Shown here: positions 34,012-43,825 of the stretch, one piece after another | Numbering within the stretch: the stretch's first letter is position 1 | How the letters are laid out: each line of letters opens with the position of its first letter | Assembly: GCF_005217605.1 (NCBI RefSeq) | Contig: NZ_SZPX01000001.1 | Coordinates: 372,001-436,000 of the forward strand | From: Sulfurimonas crateris | GTDB taxonomy: Bacteria; Campylobacterota; Campylobacteria; Campylobacterales; Sulfurimonadaceae | Length of the DNA: 64,000 nucleotides | Reading direction: 5' to 3' | Translations under genes and position numbers: made by a program | The notes under the pieces: generated by a model | What the model saw: only the letters and a program-made list of their open reading frames with translations | Told to the model about the DNA's origin: nothing | Databases searched by the model: none

Positions 34012-34554
34012 TTAGTATAGTCCGAACTTTCCGTCATTTCTCTTGTAGAGAACTCTTGTTTTTCCGTCGTTGTCTATGAAGATCTCAAATAGTTTCTTAT
34101 TCTCTTTTATATCATTTAAGACATCTTCTACTTCACGCGGTTTGTATAGAGTAAGCTCAACCGGAACTATCTCATCTTCCATAGCTTCGCTTGCTTCATG
34201 TAGGTCTATACCATTACCTGCTTCATTTTTTGCTTCGTTTATGCCGTCTTTGTGATGGTGGTTGTCTTTGTCATGCATGCGGCGGAGTGCTTTTTGCGCT
34301 CTTGCTGTTGCCAAGTCAATAGCAGCGTAGAGATCTTCATCACTCTGTTTGATAACTATAGAGTTTTTATGTGCCAAATTTATAACAAACTCTATGACAG
34401 ATAGAGGCTTGCCTTTTTTAGTCTGGCTTGTTGCGATCAGGTTTACAGAGATGATGTCCATATTGTATTTGCTAAGTGTTTCTATTGATGCATTCATGTG
34501 CGCTTTTATAGGCTCTGTAAGCTCCACATGTCTCCCAGTTAATGATATATTCAT
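34012..34554 (-). CDS. hpf: Long-form ribosome hibernation promoting factor
   Basis: The 180-residue protein has an N-terminal S30AE domain with QSDEDLYAAIDLATARAQKA and KALRRMHD, a His/Glu-rich linker (about 105-130), and the C-terminal dimerisation domain KLFEIFIDNDGKTRVLYKR ending in KFGLY. The long form pairs two 70S ribosomes into 100S dimers. ATG 34554 follows AAAAGGATTTACT. It is the second HPF-family gene in this window; the short one is at 10779. Confidence 0.93.
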   Translation of the reverse strand: MNISLTGRHVELTEPIKAHMNASIETLSKYNMDIISVNLIATSQTKKGKPLSVIEFVINLAHKNSIVIKQSDEDLYAAIDLATARAQKALRRMHDKDNHHHKDGINEAKNEAGNGIDLHEASEAMEDEIVPVELTLYKPREVEDVLNDIKENKKLFEIFIDNDGKTRVLYKRNDGKFGLY

Positions 34555-34618: not shown

Positions 34619-35098
34619 TTAGAGCTTTTGAATAGTTCTTCTAAAGTAGCGGATAGGTTCGGTTGTGATATCTGTTTTTGTTGAAACGACAACATCCATC
34701 AATACAGAACCGTTTTGTTCAGGAGTGTTAATATTGTTAATATACATATCGCATCCGCCAACATTGTTAGTAAAAACATATTGCACACTGACATTTACAT
34801 CAAAAATACTAGTGATGTTGATATCAAAAGGAAGTGCAGTATATGTGTTTAAGCAGTTTGTGACAGGGTCTCTCTTTGCAATCTCTAACAGAGTTAATTC
34901 TACTGCGCTTTTTGCTACCAACTCAGCTTGCTCATAAAGGTAGAGGTCAACCGTTCTTTTTGTCGTCTCTGTGGTAAGAGAAAGAGAGAGAGCCATAATG
35001 GTAGAGATGACCACAATAACGGCTATTGCCATTATCATGGCAAAGCCTGAGCGCTTCTTGCGAGGATTGGTTTTTAAAATACTGTTTTTTCTTTGCAT
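34619..35098 (-). CDS. Prepilin-like protein without Glu5 (PilX/GspK-like tip candidate)
   Basis: The 159-residue protein has a class III type leader: a basic RKKRSG ending in Gly18, then FAMIMAIAVIVVISTIM as the hydrophobic N-terminal helix. Residue +5 of the mature protein is Met in place of the usual Glu, as in GspK/PilX proteins that sit at the fibre tip. The rest is a small globular domain with a few Cys (NCLN, GGCDMY). It is the last gene of the pseudopilin operon and overlaps the previous gene by 25 bases. The function is inferred from the leader and position only. Confidence 0.78.
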   Translation of the reverse strand: MQRKNSILKTNPRKKRSGFAMIMAIAVIVVISTIMALSLSLTTETTKRTVDLYLYEQAELVAKSAVELTLLEIAKRDPVTNCLNTYTALPFDINITSIFDVNVSVQYVFTNNVGGCDMYINNINTPEQNGSVLMDVVVSTKTDITTEPIRYFRRTIQKL

Positions 35099-35964
35099 AA
35101 CGAATAATCCTCCATCAAATCAGTTTTTACGCACACTTGAATCTTTACAATCGAACCTGCAGCTCTAAATCTAAAAGTATCTACATCCTTCATAATAAGC
35201 GCTTTTTTTCCATCTGTATAGCTCTCGCCTTCCCACGGTTGGTAGTCATAGTAAAGAGTCAAGTTCCCATCAGCCGGAGTATGCACAACAGCATTGGCAG
35301 TCCATGCAAGCTGGTAGTACTCATAAACATCAGTCCCTGTAAAGTTGTTATCGGCCCCTGTTGCTCCGTTTGTCGGTACAAACTGGTCTACAACGCCGTT
35401 GCTTCTTATGGGGTGCATAGCAACATCTTGGGTAGTTATAGCCCCTCCCCATCCATAGCCCGTGTAGATATCACTGTCTGAACCTACAAAGTAGATCGCG
35501 GCATTATCAATTCCGCTATTGGCGCTAGAGAGTGTGCTTATAAGAGTATCCAACTCTGCAGTGTCAGTGTTTGGAGAGACTAAAGTATTTTCATTGCTGT
35601 TAGGATCTCTCAAATCGATTATTCCGCTCCAGTGCGGCAGAACAGCACTGTTTCCGCGAAAACCGTCAATGTCAGTTGCTACCCACTCTAAAATTGTTGC
35701 AGTATCTCCATAATCAGAACTTGCCAAAGCTTTATAGTCGGCGGCGCTCTTTTTTGCAATAATAGAGTCTTTTATGCGGTACTGAAGTCTTGAAGCAATG
35801 GTCTCAACAGCAGCTGTACTTTGAGACTGGAGTCTGTTGTTGACACTTGAAAATATAAAACTTTTATACGCTTGAGAGAGAAGCTCAATGCCAAATTTTG
35901 CCAAGATTCCCATTATGACTATGACAAATATAAGCTCCAGAAGAGTAAAGGCAGCTCTACGCAT
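35074..35964 (-). CDS. Type IV pilin-like (pseudopilin) protein, 296 aa
   Basis: The protein starts with a very short prepilin leader, MRRAA, followed by FTLLELIFVIVIMGILAKFG: the conserved Phe1 and Glu5 of the mature pilin helix are present. Residue -1 is Ala, not Gly. The remaining 250 residues are a large variable globular domain (YFVGSDSDIYTGYGWGG, YYDYQPWEGESYTDGKK). Size and order suggest a MshO/PilW-like minor pilin. The start overlaps the stop of the preceding gene as TAATG. Confidence 0.82.
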   Translation of the reverse strand: MRRAAFTLLELIFVIVIMGILAKFGIELLSQAYKSFIFSSVNNRLQSQSTAAVETIASRLQYRIKDSIIAKKSAADYKALASSDYGDTATILEWVATDIDGFRGNSAVLPHWSGIIDLRDPNSNENTLVSPNTDTAELDTLISTLSSANSGIDNAAIYFVGSDSDIYTGYGWGGAITTQDVAMHPIRSNGVVDQFVPTNGATGADNNFTGTDVYEYYQLAWTANAVVHTPADGNLTLYYDYQPWEGESYTDGKKALIMKDVDTFRFRAAGSIVKIQVCVKTDLMEDYSLCKEKTVF

Positions 35965-36581
35965 TAAAATCTCCTCTTGTAGTAGTCTATTTCGCCGATG
36001 TTTGCGCTGTATATTTTTAGTACCGTAAGAAGCTTTGGAGGTGTTGCTGAATCATATACTGAGGCAGTAAGTACTTTTATATTGCTATCTGTTGCTGCTT
36101 GTGTGACAATGACTTGGCTCTGGTACTCCTGCTTGTATCCTGCAGCTTCTGCAGCACTAGTGTCAAACAGATCGCCAACAGTAGCATCAACCGCATTGTT
36201 AAGGTTGGGAAAAGTAGTATCTGTCGTATTTGCAAGCCCAGTAGTATTGCTGTCTAAACATCTTCTGTGATAAGGCTGATTTACATGACCGGGTCTTAAT
36301 CTATCAGCATTACATGCGCCATTAACTTCAATAACTCTAGAAAGACGACTAAGAGCGTTGTCTTGCATAGAGTTTAAATCCCAATAGTACGATGTAGCTC
36401 CCATAAGTTCAGCAGAAGCGGCAAAGATGGCTTCTTGGACTATGTTGTCCTCTATTCCTTTTGATGTAACTTGCATCATCACAGGAAGAGACATAACGGC
36501 AATAGAGATAATCACGATAGCAAAGATAAGCTCTATCATTGTAAAAGCGGCTCTGCGAAGAGCGGATTTTCTTTTTACCAC
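35964..36581 (-). CDS. Type IV pilin-like (pseudopilin) protein, 205 aa
   Basis: The leader is MVKRKSALRRAA, then FTMIELIFAIVIISIAVMSL, with Phe1 and Glu5; Ala at -1 again replaces Gly. The globular part holds two Cys (GACNADRLRP, HRRCLDS) that could form a disulfide, in the style of PilV/MshP minor pilins. It overlaps the adhesin gene by seven bases, so the two are translationally coupled. Confidence 0.82.
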   Translation of the reverse strand: MVKRKSALRRAAFTMIELIFAIVIISIAVMSLPVMMQVTSKGIEDNIVQEAIFAASAELMGATSYYWDLNSMQDNALSRLSRVIEVNGACNADRLRPGHVNQPYHRRCLDSNTTGLANTTDTTFPNLNNAVDATVGDLFDTSAAEAAGYKQEYQSQVIVTQAATDSNIKVLTASVYDSATPPKLLTVLKIYSANIGEIDYYKRRF

Positions 36582-39500
36582 ATGATTCTCCTATTTGTTG
36601 TTGCTGTATCTGGAATTTTTGTGGTAGTGCTCGTATTGTGCTCACCCGTCCAGTCTCCTGTGTCGTCAAACTCCACTTGGAACTCGTTTCTGGTGGCAAA
36701 CGGGTCGCTTTCGTTGTAGATGAGCCATGGAGATGCTTCATTTTGCATAGTGGTTTTGTACGGATAATCTTTGCTTTCATCATAATCAAGAATTGTTACA
36801 GATGGATTTCCAAGTGGGTTGTCTGTTGCATCTACGATATCATCTATATTTGTTCCGCCTTTTTGAACAACTATGCCCACCGCACCGTCAGTCGGTGTAG
36901 CATGAAAAGGAGTGGGAATAACATACCATCTTGCATCATCTGTCCTTGTTGAGTTGATGCCGTTTGGAAGCAAAGATTTGTCACTACAGCCTGTTCCAAA
37001 GCAGTAAGCTTCAAAATATATATTTGCCGGATTATTAAGAGGAGTATTGTATCTCTGTCTTGAGGCATGTGTGCGACCGTAAACAAATGTAGCATTGCCT
37101 CCGACATTTACGCCGCTTACATTGTCTGTGTCTGTTGCGTTGATCTCATTTACGACGACTGCAAAAGGGTTTACGACTTTGCTTGTATTTCTATCGAAAT
37201 TTATTTTGTAGTTAAACTCTGCCGTGCCGTTAGTATCGTTGCTGTCAAACTGTGTACTTGAAAAAGGTAGATTATACTCAGTTGTTCCAAGTACTAGCGG
37301 AATTGAGCCGTTGTCATCAGGGGTATAATGGTACCAGAGCAGTTTGGTCAGCGAGTCTGTTTCAGGGTTGTCTTTATTGATCGCATCTGCCAAAGTGAGT
37401 TTCATATTGCCGTCTTTTGCGTAACACTCGGCAGTGTAATTGCTTGTAACCGTATTTGTAAGGGTCTTCGCAGAGATGTTGACATCAAAAGACGCTGAGA
37501 TATTGCGATCAGCATCATTTGGAAAGCGCTCAAAGTTTGAGAGGTATGTAAAACCGTTTGAGCCGTTCTCCAAGCCGCCTTCTATCCCAAAGTGGTGAGG
37601 AATAACTCTTATCTGTGTTACAAACGGCTCTATCAATCTATCAGCATCAGTAGTATCGTCTGCATCAACAACTGCAAATTCAAATCCTGCTCTTTCCTGC
37701 ATTGTAAGATTGAATTCTCCAACATTATTTAAAGCGTAGTTGCCGGAAGCATCTCCATTTGTAAAATCAACAGGAGGAGTAAAGTTTATGCTCATCTCTT
37801 CACATGTTTTTGACGGGTCTGTTATATTGATATCAACTGCAAATGATGAGCCTTCAGTTTCGTTGTAATCAAGTGATGCCGCTCCTGTGTAATCTTCGGC
37901 ATAAATAGTAAGCGGAACCGCTTCTCCTGCCTTAAAAGGGTCCGGCAGCATCGTAGTGTTAAAATCATTTGGACGGATTGCAAAATTGTCCTCAGAACAT
38001 AGATCTCCTTGCATAGCATCAGCTAGACACATTGCGCATCCAAAGTCGGTGTTGTACTCTGAAGGCGAAATAGTTCTTATACGTCCACCACAGTTTCCAT
38101 TGTATGCATTTGAGTCACATGGAGCAGAGGTACCAGGTGTTCCATCGCCATAGATACATCTCATAACATTGTCTTGAAATGCGGGAGGAAAGACAGAGAG
38201 AATGTTTTGTACATTGTTAAAGCAGGCAGGAACCAAACAAAGAGAGCTCTCAAGTGAACTGGTATTACAGTTTAAGCCATCTGCATTTTCAAGAAGCGCT
38301 CCCCAGTCATAAGATGTAATTTTAGCTCTTCTGTCTCTATAAGCTCTGTCTATAGTAAGTGCTCCAATATCAGTGTCTTCTTCCCCATGGCGAATTATGC
38401 CTTGTCCAAGATATTTTGCATCTGTGCAAGAGACTCCATCAGCATGCTCTAAAATAACAGTCATATCTACTGTGTCGTTTGGCTTGTCTGAGTATTGACC
38501 ATCATAAGTTGCTACATTTCCTAGCGGGTCAAGATAGGAAGCATGAAGGTAAAACTCTTTGTTGATTATTTTAGTAGTAATACTTTTGTTTGAATCATAA
38601 TCAAATCCTACCTCGTTAATTCCTACACTGCCTGAAGTTGCTGGAGGTATATAAGTACCACCTCCGCAATATTTAGAGTGAAAAGTGAGATCAACACTGT
38701 ACGGAGTAGCATTGGTTTTTGATGTTCCTAGCAAGCCAAGATAATAGACTCTTTTTCCATCAGGCTGTGTCGGGTCTGCATAAACCGGTATAGTGGCAGT
38801 TTCACTGCGATATCCTGAGTCTAACTGACTTGTCGTGCCTTTGCTGAAAATAGTAGGACAGTTGTCTCCAAAGTCATAGTAGAGTATGAGTTTGTCATCA
38901 CTCATCTCTGTATTTGTAAGGTTTACATCCAGATAGCCATCCTCATAAACAGTAATTTTGTAATATTGCCCATCAACAGAAGTTACGCCATTTGGGCTGG
39001 ACTCCTCCACAAAAGCTGTGTCCTCATTGCTACAGTTGTCATCCGTTTCAAGAAGAGGTATTGCGTCGGCACAATAACTATTTATAAAAATTGTAACATT
39101 AGCCTCATTTGAATCTATACCATATTCATTTGTAACTCTATATGTAAAATAATCAACATCAGTAACTTCTGAGCCTGTATATGTATATGTAAAATTCCCG
39201 TCAGCTAAAATAGGGTTTGGTGATAAATTGCCGACACTTGGTGTAGTATTTGAAAGAACAGTAATATTGTTTTCCGTGTAGTAAGTACCATATGGATAGT
39301 CTGAAATAAGGCTGGCAACTAATGTGTCTGTAGGAGCAACAGAGTAATATCTGTCGTACGCAATAGGTATGGGATACCCTATGCTAACGGTTGCAACATT
39401 AGAGATTGTACCTTCGTTGTCCTCAACGGTATATGTAAAACTATCTGTTCCGTCAAAAGGGGATGGAGGAGTATATGTTATAGTGCCGTTTACATAATCA

Positions 39501-40024
39501 ATGGTTATGCTTCCATCCACCGGATCAGTGGCTACAATTGAGGCTTTGTTTAAAGTTCCATCAAGGTCATAATCGTTTAGTAATACATCAATTATTGTGG
39601 GATTTACGCCGTCTGTCTCTGCAGCGTCATCAACAGCCACTGGAATTTGGTTACCAACATTAAGAGTTAGTGTTAATGTATAAGTCTGGTTTGATACTTC
39701 ACCAGGTGCACTAGAACTCAAATAGATTGTTTGACCTGCATTATAAAAGAGAGGACCAAATGATGTTAATGTATGTGTTGTTTTATCAGGCATACTTGTT
39801 GTACTGACATCAAATTTTACAGTTGAGTTTCCAGATAGTTCAGCAGAAAAATAACCGCTCTCTATTATCGAAATTGTAAACTGATCAATATCATTTTGTT
39901 TAACAACTAAATTTGTTTGAGTATATCCGGTACTCGTTAGGCTGACAACATAATTGCCATATGTATCAGCAATTAGCGAAAACGTAAAAAACAAAACAAT
40001 TAAAAAAGAGCGAAATAGATTCAT
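36575..40024 (-). CDS. Large MshQ-like surface protein with cadherin-like domains (DUF6701-like)
   Basis: The 1149-residue exported protein has a signal peptide (residues 1-19). Residues about 130-215 form a tandem-95/cadherin-like repeat (IDVLLNDYDLDGT, TPPSPFDGTDSFTYTVEDN), and a second related repeat follows at about 225-315. The centre is cysteine-rich (about 605-690). From about 690 on, FAIRPNDFN and later PWLIYNESDPFATRNEF match the C-terminal region of MshQ-like proteins (DUF6701). No membrane anchor is seen at the C-terminus. It heads an operon of three pilin-like proteins, so it is likely exposed on, or secreted with, a short pilus-like fibre. The start has TGGAGGACCCA. Confidence 0.82.
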   Translation of the reverse strand: MNLFRSFLIVLFFTFSLIADTYGNYVVSLTSTGYTQTNLVVKQNDIDQFTISIIESGYFSAELSGNSTVKFDVSTTSMPDKTTHTLTSFGPLFYNAGQTIYLSSSAPGEVSNQTYTLTLTLNVGNQIPVAVDDAAETDGVNPTIIDVLLNDYDLDGTLNKASIVATDPVDGSITIDYVNGTITYTPPSPFDGTDSFTYTVEDNEGTISNVATVSIGYPIPIAYDRYYSVAPTDTLVASLISDYPYGTYYTENNITVLSNTTPSVGNLSPNPILADGNFTYTYTGSEVTDVDYFTYRVTNEYGIDSNEANVTIFINSYCADAIPLLETDDNCSNEDTAFVEESSPNGVTSVDGQYYKITVYEDGYLDVNLTNTEMSDDKLILYYDFGDNCPTIFSKGTTSQLDSGYRSETATIPVYADPTQPDGKRVYYLGLLGTSKTNATPYSVDLTFHSKYCGGGTYIPPATSGSVGINEVGFDYDSNKSITTKIINKEFYLHASYLDPLGNVATYDGQYSDKPNDTVDMTVILEHADGVSCTDAKYLGQGIIRHGEEDTDIGALTIDRAYRDRRAKITSYDWGALLENADGLNCNTSSLESSLCLVPACFNNVQNILSVFPPAFQDNVMRCIYGDGTPGTSAPCDSNAYNGNCGGRIRTISPSEYNTDFGCAMCLADAMQGDLCSEDNFAIRPNDFNTTMLPDPFKAGEAVPLTIYAEDYTGAASLDYNETEGSSFAVDINITDPSKTCEEMSINFTPPVDFTNGDASGNYALNNVGEFNLTMQERAGFEFAVVDADDTTDADRLIEPFVTQIRVIPHHFGIEGGLENGSNGFTYLSNFERFPNDADRNISASFDVNISAKTLTNTVTSNYTAECYAKDGNMKLTLADAINKDNPETDSLTKLLWYHYTPDDNGSIPLVLGTTEYNLPFSSTQFDSNDTNGTAEFNYKINFDRNTSKVVNPFAVVVNEINATDTDNVSGVNVGGNATFVYGRTHASRQRYNTPLNNPANIYFEAYCFGTGCSDKSLLPNGINSTRTDDARWYVIPTPFHATPTDGAVGIVVQKGGTNIDDIVDATDNPLGNPSVTILDYDESKDYPYKTTMQNEASPWLIYNESDPFATRNEFQVEFDDTGDWTGEHNTSTTTKIPDTATTNRRIMW

Positions 40025-40671: not shown

Positions 40672-41427
40672 ATGAAATTTAAAACTTACGCAATGCTCGC
40701 ACTACTCTCAATGACGCTTCTTTTTACAGGTTGTTCAAAAGAGATCGAAGAGTATAACAAGCCTGCCATGTATTGGTACTCAAAGATTACGCAAAGCGTC
40801 TCAAACGGAGACCTTGAGAGAGCGGACTCTTACTACAGCTCACTTCAAGGAGAGCACATCGGCTCACCGCTTCTGCCTGAAGCTACAATGATACTGGCAC
40901 TTGCCCACATGCAGCATGAAGAGTACCTCTTAAGTGAGTATTTTTTAGATGAGTATATAAAGAGATATGCGACGCCTAATGAAAAAGAGGAGGCGGAGTT
41001 TTTAAAGATAAAAGCAAAGTATAAAGCACTTCCGCATCCAAGACGTGATCAGGCACTTATAGATGATGCTATTGTCGAGGGTGAGAGATTTAAGCTCAAT
41101 TATCCTGGTTCAATGTACGCTGAAGTTGTAAATACAATGCTTGTGCGTCTCTATCTTGCTCAATATGTTTTAAATGAGGAGATAACAGACCTCTACGAGA
41201 GGCTAGACAAGCCAAAGAGCGCAGAGTACTACAGAAGCATAAACCCGCAGCCGTGGATCGCCTCTTCAGAGGTTGACAGAGCGGTGGCTCCTTGGTACAG
41301 AGCTTGGTTTGAGGGGGACGGCACTTCAAGTTGGTACGACTTTATGATACCTGATACAAAAAGTGTGGTATCGAGAAATTCTATATCCGAGGAAGATGTT
41401 CAAGGAGAGAGTAATGAAACTAAGTGA
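40672..41427 (+). CDS. bamD: Outer membrane assembly lipoprotein BamD
   Basis: The 251-residue lipoprotein has lipobox LLFTGC (Cys21) and TPR-like helical repeats (WYSKITQSVSNGDLERADSY, LALAHMQHEEYLLSEYFLDE, PGSMYAEVVNTMLVRLYL). BamD is the essential lipoprotein partner of BamA in inserting barrel proteins, which here would include the 15965 protein and LptD. AGGAAAAAATTTA precedes the ATG. The gene overlaps lon by 14 bases. Confidence 0.9.
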   Translation: MKFKTYAMLALLSMTLLFTGCSKEIEEYNKPAMYWYSKITQSVSNGDLERADSYYSSLQGEHIGSPLLPEATMILALAHMQHEEYLLSEYFLDEYIKRYATPNEKEEAEFLKIKAKYKALPHPRRDQALIDDAIVEGERFKLNYPGSMYAEVVNTMLVRLYLAQYVLNEEITDLYERLDKPKSAEYYRSINPQPWIASSEVDRAVAPWYRAWFEGDGTSSWYDFMIPDTKSVVSRNSISEEDVQGESNETK

Positions 41428-43825
41428 TTATAGTGAATTTCCTGCTGATATTCCTATAATAGCAGAGGATGAGCTCTTTTTATACCCGTTTATGATCTCA
41501 CCGCTTTTTTTAAGTGATGAGAGCAATATAAAAGCCGCTACAAAGGCTATAGAAGAGAGCTCTTTGGTAATTGTCTGTTCTACAAAGCCATCCCATGAGG
41601 GAGAGAGAGATTTTGAATCTCTTTACAGTGCTGGTGTTGTAGGCTCAATTATGAGAAAAGTTGCACTTCCAGACGGAAGAGTTAAGGTTCTTTTTCAAGG
41701 TCTTGCACGTGCAAAGGTTGCTTATAAAGTATCTGATAACCCGCTTATAGCGCATGTTGAGGTTATTAATGCTACAAACGTAAACTCTCTAAAGATAGAT
41801 GCTATCTTAGAAGTTGTACGTGAAAAGGTAAGAACTCTTGCCGGTGTGAGCAACTACTTTCCTCCCGATCTGCTAAGAACTATAGAGGAGAATCACGACC
41901 ATAACAGAATAATCGACCTTATCTGCAGTACGGTAAAACTTAAAAAAGAGCAGGCCTATAATCTTTTTGTAGAGTCAAACACGGAGAAGAGGTTTTTAGA
42001 CCTCATTGAGTATCTTATTGACGAGATAGAGGCGAATAAACTCCAAAAAGAGATTCGCTCTAAAGTACACAGCCATATAGAGAAGGTAAATAAAGAGTAC
42101 TTCTTAAAAGAGCAGTTAAAGCAGATACAAAAAGAGCTTGGAACGGACACTTCAAGAGATGAAGAGATCGAGGAGTATCGCAAAAAGCTTGAGGCTAAAA
42201 AAGAGAAGATGAGCGAAGAAGCCTATAAAGAGATAGGCAAGCAGATAGACAGATTTTCACGTATGCACCCTGACTCTTCCGATGCCTCTATGACGCAGAC
42301 ATATCTTGATTGGGCTTTGGAGATACCTTTTGGGGATGAGAGCAAAAAGAAACTACATATAAGTGACGTACAAAATCAGCTAGATCGTGATCACTTCTCA
42401 CTAGAGAAGCCTAAGCAGAGAATAACGGAATTTTTTGCGGTAAAAGAGCTTATGGAGCTTAGAGGCATAAAGAGCAACTCCGGTGCGATCATCTGTTTCT
42501 CGGGACCTCCCGGTGTAGGAAAGACCTCTCTAGCAAACTCTATCGCAGAAGCACTCAAACGCCCGCTTATCAGGATCGCACTTGGCGGGCTTGAAGATGT
42601 GAACGAGCTAAGGGGGCACAGAAGAACATATGTCGGTGCAATGCCGGGGCGCATAGTTCAAGGCATTATAGATGCTAAAAAAATGAACCCTGTGGTAGTC
42701 CTAGATGAGATCGACAAAGTTGCAAAAACAGGAAGAGGCGACCCTACTGCCGCACTTTTGGAGATACTAGATCCTGAGCAGAACAAGGAGTTTAGAGATT
42801 ACTACTTAAACTTCAACATCGACCTCTCAAAAGTTATCTTTATAGCTACGGCAAACGATGTAGGCAGGATTCCCGCACCTCTGCGTGACAGAATGGAGTT
42901 TATTACCATAAGTTCATATACGCCGCAGGAGAAGTATGAGATCGCATCAAGATATCTGATCCCGCAGGAGCTTAAAAAGCATGGACTTAAAAAGTCTGAG
43001 GTCAGCATATCAAAGCCTGCACTAAAAGAGCTTATTCACAGCTATACGCGTGAAGCGGGCGTGCGTAATCTTCGCCACCGCCTTGCCAATATGTCAAGAA
43101 AAGTGGCACGTGAGATACTGGAACATCCTGAGGTAAGCAAAGTCTCACTTACCCTTAAAAATCTAAAAGAGTATTTTGATAAAACTGTTTTTGAGATTGA
43201 AAAAACTACAAGAGTCCCTGTCGTAGGAGTTGTAAACGGTTTGGCATGGACTGCGGTCGGCGGTGATGTCTTAAAGCTTGAGAGTATTCGCATAAAAGGC
43301 AAAGGTGGCATGCAGCTTACCGGAAGCCTCGGCGATGTTATGAAAGAGTCTGCACTAATTGCGTACAGCGTCGTAAAAACGTTAATAGATACGAAAAAAT
43401 TAAAGATAGACGTTAAAAATATTCCTTTGACGATCAAAGAGAGAGAAGAAAAAACGGAAATGGATCCTAGCGAGGTGTATAAGCGATATGATCTCCATAT
43501 TCACGTTCCTGACGGTGCTACTCCAAAAGATGGACCGAGTGCCGGCATAGCGATGGTAAGTGTTATATCCTCGATACTCAGTTCAAAAAAAGTGCGTTCG
43601 GAAATTGCCATGACGGGAGAGGTTTCTCTTAGCGGAGATGTACTGCCGATAGGCGGACTTAGAGAGAAACTTATTGCAGCACATAAGGCTGACATGAGCA
43701 AGGTTCTTATTCCTGTGAAAAATTATGAGAGAGATCTAGAAGATATTCCGCAGGAGGTCAGAGACTCTCTTGAGATAATCGCTGTGAGTAGAGTAGAAGA
43801 GGTTTTAAAACACGTTTTAGTGTAA
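41414..43825 (+). CDS. lon: ATP-dependent protease Lon
   Basis: The 803-residue serine protease has an N-terminal LAN domain (about 1-195), a coiled region, an AAA+ domain with GPPGVGKTS Walker A and VVLDEIDKV Walker B, and a C-terminal protease domain with catalytic Ser in KDGPSAGIAM and Lys in GLREKLIAAHK. I start at ATG 41414, which has AAGGAGAGAGTA; the longer frame from 41363 extends into bamD without support. It degrades misfolded and regulatory proteins. Confidence 0.96.
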   Translation: MKLSDYSEFPADIPIIAEDELFLYPFMISPLFLSDESNIKAATKAIEESSLVIVCSTKPSHEGERDFESLYSAGVVGSIMRKVALPDGRVKVLFQGLARAKVAYKVSDNPLIAHVEVINATNVNSLKIDAILEVVREKVRTLAGVSNYFPPDLLRTIEENHDHNRIIDLICSTVKLKKEQAYNLFVESNTEKRFLDLIEYLIDEIEANKLQKEIRSKVHSHIEKVNKEYFLKEQLKQIQKELGTDTSRDEEIEEYRKKLEAKKEKMSEEAYKEIGKQIDRFSRMHPDSSDASMTQTYLDWALEIPFGDESKKKLHISDVQNQLDRDHFSLEKPKQRITEFFAVKELMELRGIKSNSGAIICFSGPPGVGKTSLANSIAEALKRPLIRIALGGLEDVNELRGHRRTYVGAMPGRIVQGIIDAKKMNPVVVLDEIDKVAKTGRGDPTAALLEILDPEQNKEFRDYYLNFNIDLSKVIFIATANDVGRIPAPLRDRMEFITISSYTPQEKYEIASRYLIPQELKKHGLKKSEVSISKPALKELIHSYTREAGVRNLRHRLANMSRKVAREILEHPEVSKVSLTLKNLKEYFDKTVFEIEKTTRVPVVGVVNGLAWTAVGGDVLKLESIRIKGKGGMQLTGSLGDVMKESALIAYSVVKTLIDTKKLKIDVKNIPLTIKEREEKTEMDPSEVYKRYDLHIHVPDGATPKDGPSAGIAMVSVISSILSSKKVRSEIAMTGEVSLSGDVLPIGGLREKLIAAHKADMSKVLIPVKNYERDLEDIPQEVRDSLEIIAVSRVEEVLKHVLV

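What the first reader, a model, noticed from the sequence alone, without database searches (positions are those of the whole stretch)
34619..40024. Adhesin plus three prepilin-like proteins: candidate short pilus-like fibre system
One transcript encodes a 1149-aa cadherin-like/MshQ-like exported protein followed by two pseudopilins and a Glu5-less pilin. All junctions overlap or touch (7, 1 and 25 bases). The Glu5-less protein may cap a fibre that displays the large adhesin. No motor, secretin or prepilin peptidase is adjacent, so the unit would use a machine elsewhere. I know of no described system of this composition in Campylobacterota.
Basis: partly seen in the sequence, partly recalled or inferred. 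Interest (0 to 1): 0.68.

Follow-up and report, generated by a model that had tools for sequence, protein, structure and literature searches.

The report
MSHA-type pilus tip with swappable adhesin
Four overlapping genes in a Sulfurimonas-like bacterium encode the adhesive tip of an MSHA-type type IV pilus whose motor lies elsewhere in the genome, and the same tip-pilin genes, stripped of the adhesin, sit where Campylobacter keeps a gene of its DNA-uptake system.

Summary
In detail: a 1149-aa exported protein and three prepilin-like proteins in overlapping frames (7, 1 and 25 bases). They are not a new kind of fibre. They match, one to one, the MshQ adhesin and the minor pilins MshD, MshO and MshP of the gammaproteobacterial MSHA pilus (profile-profile E 6e-11, 2e-17, 1e-10, 5e-8). 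The genome's only type IV filament machine is a nine-gene MSHA-type cluster 'mshIJKLMN-x-EG', whose MshL passes its curated cut-off; prepilin peptidase and two PilT-like motors are present elsewhere. All 36 relative regions read that carry the adhesin keep the order adhesin-D-O-P; in three, such a copy sits in one run with MSHA machine genes. The adhesin's C-terminal half is conserved and its head varies, as in the PilY1 tip adhesin. New here: in Campylobacter-like genomes the same trio, without adhesin, lies at the same lon-bamD-fliW locus right after proC, where the transformation gene ctsT is, and their K-L-M-N-E-G machine matches the Cts system. Most likely the D-O-P trio primes a retractable MSHA-type pilus carrying MshQ at its tip for attachment, possibly also DNA uptake. 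MSHA systems in Epsilonproteobacteria were already reported (Denise 2019); the split layout and Cts link seem new.

The parts
36575..40024 (-). MshQ-type tip adhesin, 1149 aa: signal peptide, variable head, conserved C-terminal half
39380..39652 (-). Big_9 / cadherin-like Ig domain in the variable head (residues 125-215)
   Evidence: Big_9 7e-14
36575..38011 (-). conserved C-terminal half of the adhesin (residues 672-1149): MshQ-homologous region and tandem beta-sandwich stalk
   Evidence: (hhalign vs gamma MshQ, 97%, 6e-11), model (pLDDT 82.8)
35964..36581 (-). MshD-type minor pilin (205 aa, Glu5 present)
   Evidence: vs MshD 98.9%, 1.7e-17
35074..35964 (-). MshO-type minor pilin (296 aa, Glu5 present)
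   Evidence: (vs MshO 97%, 1.2e-10)
34619..35098 (-). MshP-type Glu5-less minor pilin (159 aa), predicted tip-most pilin contacting the adhesin
   Evidence: (vs MshP 94.8%, 5e-8); PilX/GspK analogy PMC7541494
40166..40546 (-). fliW, conserved upstream neighbour (synteny marker, not part of the pilus)
34012..34554 (-). hpf (ribosome hibernation factor), conserved downstream neighbour (synteny marker, not part of the pilus)
40672..43825 (+). bamD (40672-41427) and lon (41363-43825), conserved divergent neighbours used to find the locus in distant genomes

Best explanation
The four genes encode the tip-priming complex of an MSHA-type type IV pilus. MshD, MshO and Glu5-less MshP homologues assemble in the inner membrane, start the filament and stay at its tip, with MshP outermost. 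The MshQ-type adhesin is exported by Sec, binds the minor-pilin complex through its conserved C-terminal half and exposes its variable head. Extension is by the MshE/MshG/MshL-type machine encoded on another contig, using major pilins encoded at a third locus, after processing by the single PilD; retraction is by one of two PilT-like ATPases. Function: attachment to surfaces or cells, with DNA uptake by the same filament possible. Shown here: gene content, order, one-to-one homology, conservation, in-cis linkage to machine genes in relatives, presence of all machine parts. Inferred: tip location, subunit order, adhesion, retraction.
For: One-to-one profile matches to 66 gammaproteobacterial MshD/O/P sets, cross-pairs weaker; PIL1-MshD holds on the globular domain alone (5.7e-9). 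Adhesin C-half matches 55 MshQ over 265 columns, 6e-11. Own genome: MshL 259 bits against a 250.2 cut-off, MshEN domain in the motor, gene order I-J-K-L-M-N-x-E-G, one extension ATPase and one secretin that is not phage-like, two PilT-family ATPases, PilD. Adhesin-D-O-P in all 36 adhesin regions. One run with machine genes in L060, L069, L079, and about 7 kb between a second MshL and a second adhesin in about 14 genomes. Adhesin-positive genomes have an MshL in 138 of 139 cases. Heads swap between Calx-beta, Laminin_G, PA14, Big_9, DUF11; identity to relatives is 10% in the head against 31% in the C-half. Precedents: PilX (Glu5-less) at the tip contacting PilY1 (PMC7541494); V. cholerae MshQ, a putative adhesin whose loss lowers surface MSHA (PMC7096442).
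Against: Outside the N-terminal helix the MshO and MshP matches to gammaproteobacteria are weak (0.07 and 0.005), so those two rest on N-terminal similarity, operon position, size and lack of Glu5. MSHA is usually a single locus (PMC6668835); here it is in at least three. No MshQ family model in Pfam or NCBIfam was hit. Structure search gave only generic Ig-like matches for the adhesin and nothing for the MshO homologue. No expression, imaging or phenotype data. The co-occurrence test ignores phylogeny.
Confidence: 0.82

Rival explanations
1. The pilus is first of all a DNA-uptake (competence) machine like the Campylobacter Cts system, and the MshQ-type protein is an accessory, not mainly a surface adhesin.
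For: Campylobacter-like genomes keep the trio at the ctsT locus without the adhesin and have a K-L-M-N-E-G machine that matches cts gene sizes. A ComEC-like ORF lies in the region of the major pilins (L006 16616-17884, recognised by eye).
Against: The adhesin is kept in 139 of 298 phylum genomes with head domains typical of adhesion and sugar binding. Natural transformation of this organism is not shown.
Confidence: 0.3
2. The trio and adhesin form a short pseudopilus that pushes the large protein out, as in type II secretion, so that the 1149-aa protein is a secreted substrate.
For: The Glu5-less member scores weakly with GspK (E 0.0017); GspI/J/K and MshD/O/P are related trios (established knowledge).
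Against: The secretin scores as MshL over GspD (259 against 164 bits, GspD cut-off 351) and two PilT-family retraction ATPases are present.
Confidence: 0.12
3. A separate new fibre system of Campylobacterota that only borrows the MSHA machine, with the four proteins forming a short fibre of their own.
For: The cluster lies apart from machine and major pilins in this genome.
Against: In L060, L069 and L079 the same four genes sit in a run with MSHA machine genes, and all four have MSHA counterparts.
Confidence: 0.05

Closest known systems
MSHA (mannose-sensitive haemagglutinin) type IV pilus, mshI-Q of Vibrio, Shewanella, Aeromonas
   Same: MshD, MshO, MshP, MshQ counterparts; machine genes in the order I-J-K-L-M-N-E-G; MshL over the curated cut-off; no prepilin peptidase in the loci
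   Different: adhesin gene comes first (Q-D-O-P, not D-O-P-Q); pilus genes split over at least three loci; much diverged head; extra 181-aa gene between mshN and mshE
Cts natural-transformation system of Campylobacter (ctsR-D-P-X-E-F, ctsT, ctsG)
   Same: K-L-M-N-E-G machine order; ctsT position lon-bamD-fliW-proC-ctsT followed by MshO- and MshP-type genes
   Different: no adhesin gene at the locus; the MshD-type pilin is only about 100 aa; mshI and mshJ not found beside the machine
PilY1-minor pilin tip complex of type IVa pili (Myxococcus, Pseudomonas)
   Same: large adhesin with variable head and conserved C-terminal part encoded with minor pilins including a Glu5-less one
   Different: no PilY1 domain detected by Pfam; an MshQ-type C-terminal half instead
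MSH systems predicted in Epsilonproteobacteria by Denise et al. 2019 (PMC6668835)
   Same: same class in the same phylum
   Different: mshQ is not mentioned in the main text held, and the passages read do not describe a separate minor-pilin locus or a Cts link

Membership tests
MSHA-type (MSH) type IV pilus | MshL-type secretin | tested here: met
   TIGR02519 259 bits, cut-off 250.2
MSHA-type (MSH) type IV pilus | MshE (MshEN domain), MshG and MshM next to MshL | tested here: met
   T2SSE + MshEN, T2SSF, AAA ATPase in mshI..G order
MSHA-type (MSH) type IV pilus | MshA-type major pilin | tested here: inconclusive
   two major-like pilins at L006 7767-8789; class not resolved by NCBIfam
MSHA-type (MSH) type IV pilus | minor pilins MshD, MshO, MshP | tested here: met
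   MshO and MshP mainly through the N-terminal part
MSHA-type (MSH) type IV pilus | MshQ | tested here: met
   C-terminal half, 97%, 6e-11
MSHA-type (MSH) type IV pilus | single locus (typical, not obligatory) | tested here: not met
   at least three loci in this genome; single-locus copies exist in relatives
MSHA-type (MSH) type IV pilus | surface pilus, PilT-dependent retraction, adhesion | not testable with these tools
   needs microscopy and mutants
Type II secretion system | GspD secretin over its curated cut-off | tested here: not met
   164 bits, cut-off 351
Campylobacter Cts system | shared machine order and ctsT-locus pilins | tested here: met
Campylobacter Cts system | role in DNA uptake | not testable with these tools
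   needs transformation assays

The most novel reading that the evidence does not exclude
The Campylobacter Cts DNA-uptake apparatus is an MSHA pilus that lost its MshQ tip adhesin; ctsT and the two genes after it are its MshD-O-P trio. In adhesin-bearing Campylobacterota one filament would serve both attachment and DNA uptake, with fast-evolving, exchangeable heads.
Probability: 0.5. Interest if true: 0.68.

Novelty: new variant of a known kind. Interest (0 to 1): 0.5.

Why it matters
It replaces a guess at a new fibre with a concrete, testable assignment: the tip of an MSHA-type pilus in chemolithotrophic Campylobacterota, where attachment is poorly understood. It also links the Campylobacter transformation system, long described as type II secretion-like, to MSHA pili through a shared minor-pilin locus, and predicts that the two genes after ctsT are minor pilins.

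Tried and rejected
Pfam and NCBIfam gave only generic prepilin or Ig hits for the four proteins, so profile-profile comparison with fetched gamma loci was used. A plasmid-collection search with MshL found an Aeromonas caviae record whose mshQ is interrupted by insertions; it served as a first reference and was replaced by 80 named genome loci. PDB sequence search: no match for the adhesin, only pilin helices for PIL2. Fold searches were uninformative. The near-invariant C-terminal tryptophan of the adhesin was first read as functional; it is at least partly forced by the overlap with the next start codon. The second secretin (C6) was set aside as phage-like: it lies beside a Zot-like ATPase and an integrase-like gene. 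No held paper mentions Cj1078 or Cj1079.

Full report
Observation. The first is exported (signal-peptide-like start, read by eye) and carries one Big_9/cadherin-like domain; the next two carry a type IV prepilin motif with Glu5; the last has the cleavage-like motif and hydrophobic helix without Glu5.

Conservation. A search of 151 genomes of the family with the adhesin alone finds relatives in 120; the best matches are mostly to the C-terminal half. I read 36 regions of relatives. In all of them an adhesin is followed by PIL1, PIL2 and PIL3, mostly with the same 7-base overlap (PIL3 of L075 and L079 read by eye). Most lie between lon-bamD-fliW and hpf-recG. Identity of the window's adhesin to relatives: median 10% in the head, 31% in the C-half. 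Heads of 28 orthologues carry Calx-beta, DUF11, He_PIG, Laminin_G_3, PA14, Big_9 and others, each in few members: an exchangeable head on a constant base.

Machine. The genome (11 contigs, listed as 100% complete) has two secretins, of which one lies beside a Zot-like gene and an integrase-like gene and looks like a filamentous prophage. The other sits in a cluster with the order mshI-J-K-L-M-N-x-E-G. Its secretin passes the MshL cut-off (259 over 250.2) and its motor has the MshEN domain. There are two PilT-family ATPases over cut-off and one prepilin peptidase. Prepilin-motif genes elsewhere are two major-like pilins near priA and one beside citrate-lyase-like genes. No other extension ATPase was found, so on present evidence these four genes can be served only by this machine.

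Homology to MSHA. From 80 named loci of Aeromonas, Shewanella, Psychromonas and others I took 66 sets of MshD, MshO, MshP and 55 MshQ. Profile-profile comparison gives PIL1-MshD 98.9%, 1.7e-17 over the whole length; PIL2-MshO 97%, 1.2e-10; PIL3-MshP 94.8%, 5e-8; every cross-pair is weaker. With the N-terminal helix removed, PIL1-MshD remains (5.7e-9) while the other two become weak. The adhesin C-half aligns to MshQ over 265 columns at 97%, 6e-11, sharing landmarks such as DxFxxRP, FxYM/L, TxNY, FxR and YGR.

Linkage in cis. In L060, L069 and L079 a second, diverged copy of adhesin-D-O-P is followed by a further prepilin and then mshI, J, K, L, M in one run. The search with MshL shows second MshL genes about 7 kb from second adhesins in about 14 genomes. 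This is the strongest evidence that the window's cluster, too, belongs to an MSHA-type pilus.

Phylum view. The adhesin C-half is in 139 of 298 Campylobacterota genomes, 35 of 58 genera; MshL (E up to 1e-30) in 271. Of the 139, 138 have MshL (Fisher p 6e-7, not corrected for phylogeny; the overlap of the two lists was made by reading them). At the lon locus of 20 more distant genomes, 4 have trio and adhesin, 10 the trio without adhesin, 6 neither. The five genomes of genus g26 have lon-bamD-fliW-proC and then three genes of about 100, 220-240 and 145-160 aa whose profiles match PIL1, PIL2 and PIL3 one to one (6e-9; 2.6e-13 over 233 columns; 1.2e-13 over 127 columns). In C. jejuni, proC is cj1076 (243 aa) and ctsT cj1077 (100 aa) (PMC8308473), so the first gene is very likely ctsT. 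Their machine loci read K-L-(M)-N-E-G with sizes like ctsD 472, ctsP 202, ctsE 519.

Mechanism. In Myxococcus the Glu5-less PilX is placed at the top of the minor-pilin complex in contact with PilY1, whose variable N-terminal head is placed at the extreme tip (PMC7541494). In V. cholerae MshQ is the putative MSHA adhesin; its loss lowers surface pili but is not needed for retraction (PMC7096442). The anatomy here fits that plan. The AlphaFold model of the C-half (pLDDT 82.8) is rich in beta strands; Foldseek gives only generic multi-Ig matches with low TM-scores, consistent with a beta-sandwich stalk but not specific. Tip location, adhesion and retraction remain inferred.

Novelty. MSH systems in Epsilonproteobacteria are known from a genome survey (PMC6668835), and type IV pili with MSH-like parts were noted in Thiovulum (PMC9938260). 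What I did not find described is the separate adhesin-first tip locus, its head swapping, and its correspondence with the ctsT locus; the literature held here is incomplete, so this is a statement about the held papers only.

Noticed in passing
G000:C6, locus L065 7511-12565: Probable filamentous (inovirus-like) prophage: Zot-like ATPase, pIV-type secretin (383 aa) and an integrase-like gene; secretin clearly not MshL (42 bits).
   Followed up: partly
L060, L069, L079 and about 14 family genomes: A second, compact single-locus MSHA-type system with its own adhesin-D-O-P coexists with the dispersed one in many relatives.
   Followed up: partly
L184 7174-7850 (family f7): A 117-aa prepilin-like ORF plus a 108-aa ORF near the bamD/lon locus, perhaps a further reduced remnant of the trio.
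   Followed up: no
L054, L063, L076: An extra Glu5-bearing pilin of about 140-160 aa is inserted between the MshO- and MshP-type genes in one genus (g16).
   Followed up: no
L057, L058, L075, L083: Two adhesin genes in a row upstream of one pilin trio, suggesting alternative tips.
   Followed up: no
L064 10994-11539: A conserved 181-aa gene of unknown family between mshN and mshE, present in machine loci L188-L191 but not seen in the Campylobacter-like L186 and L187.
   Followed up: partly
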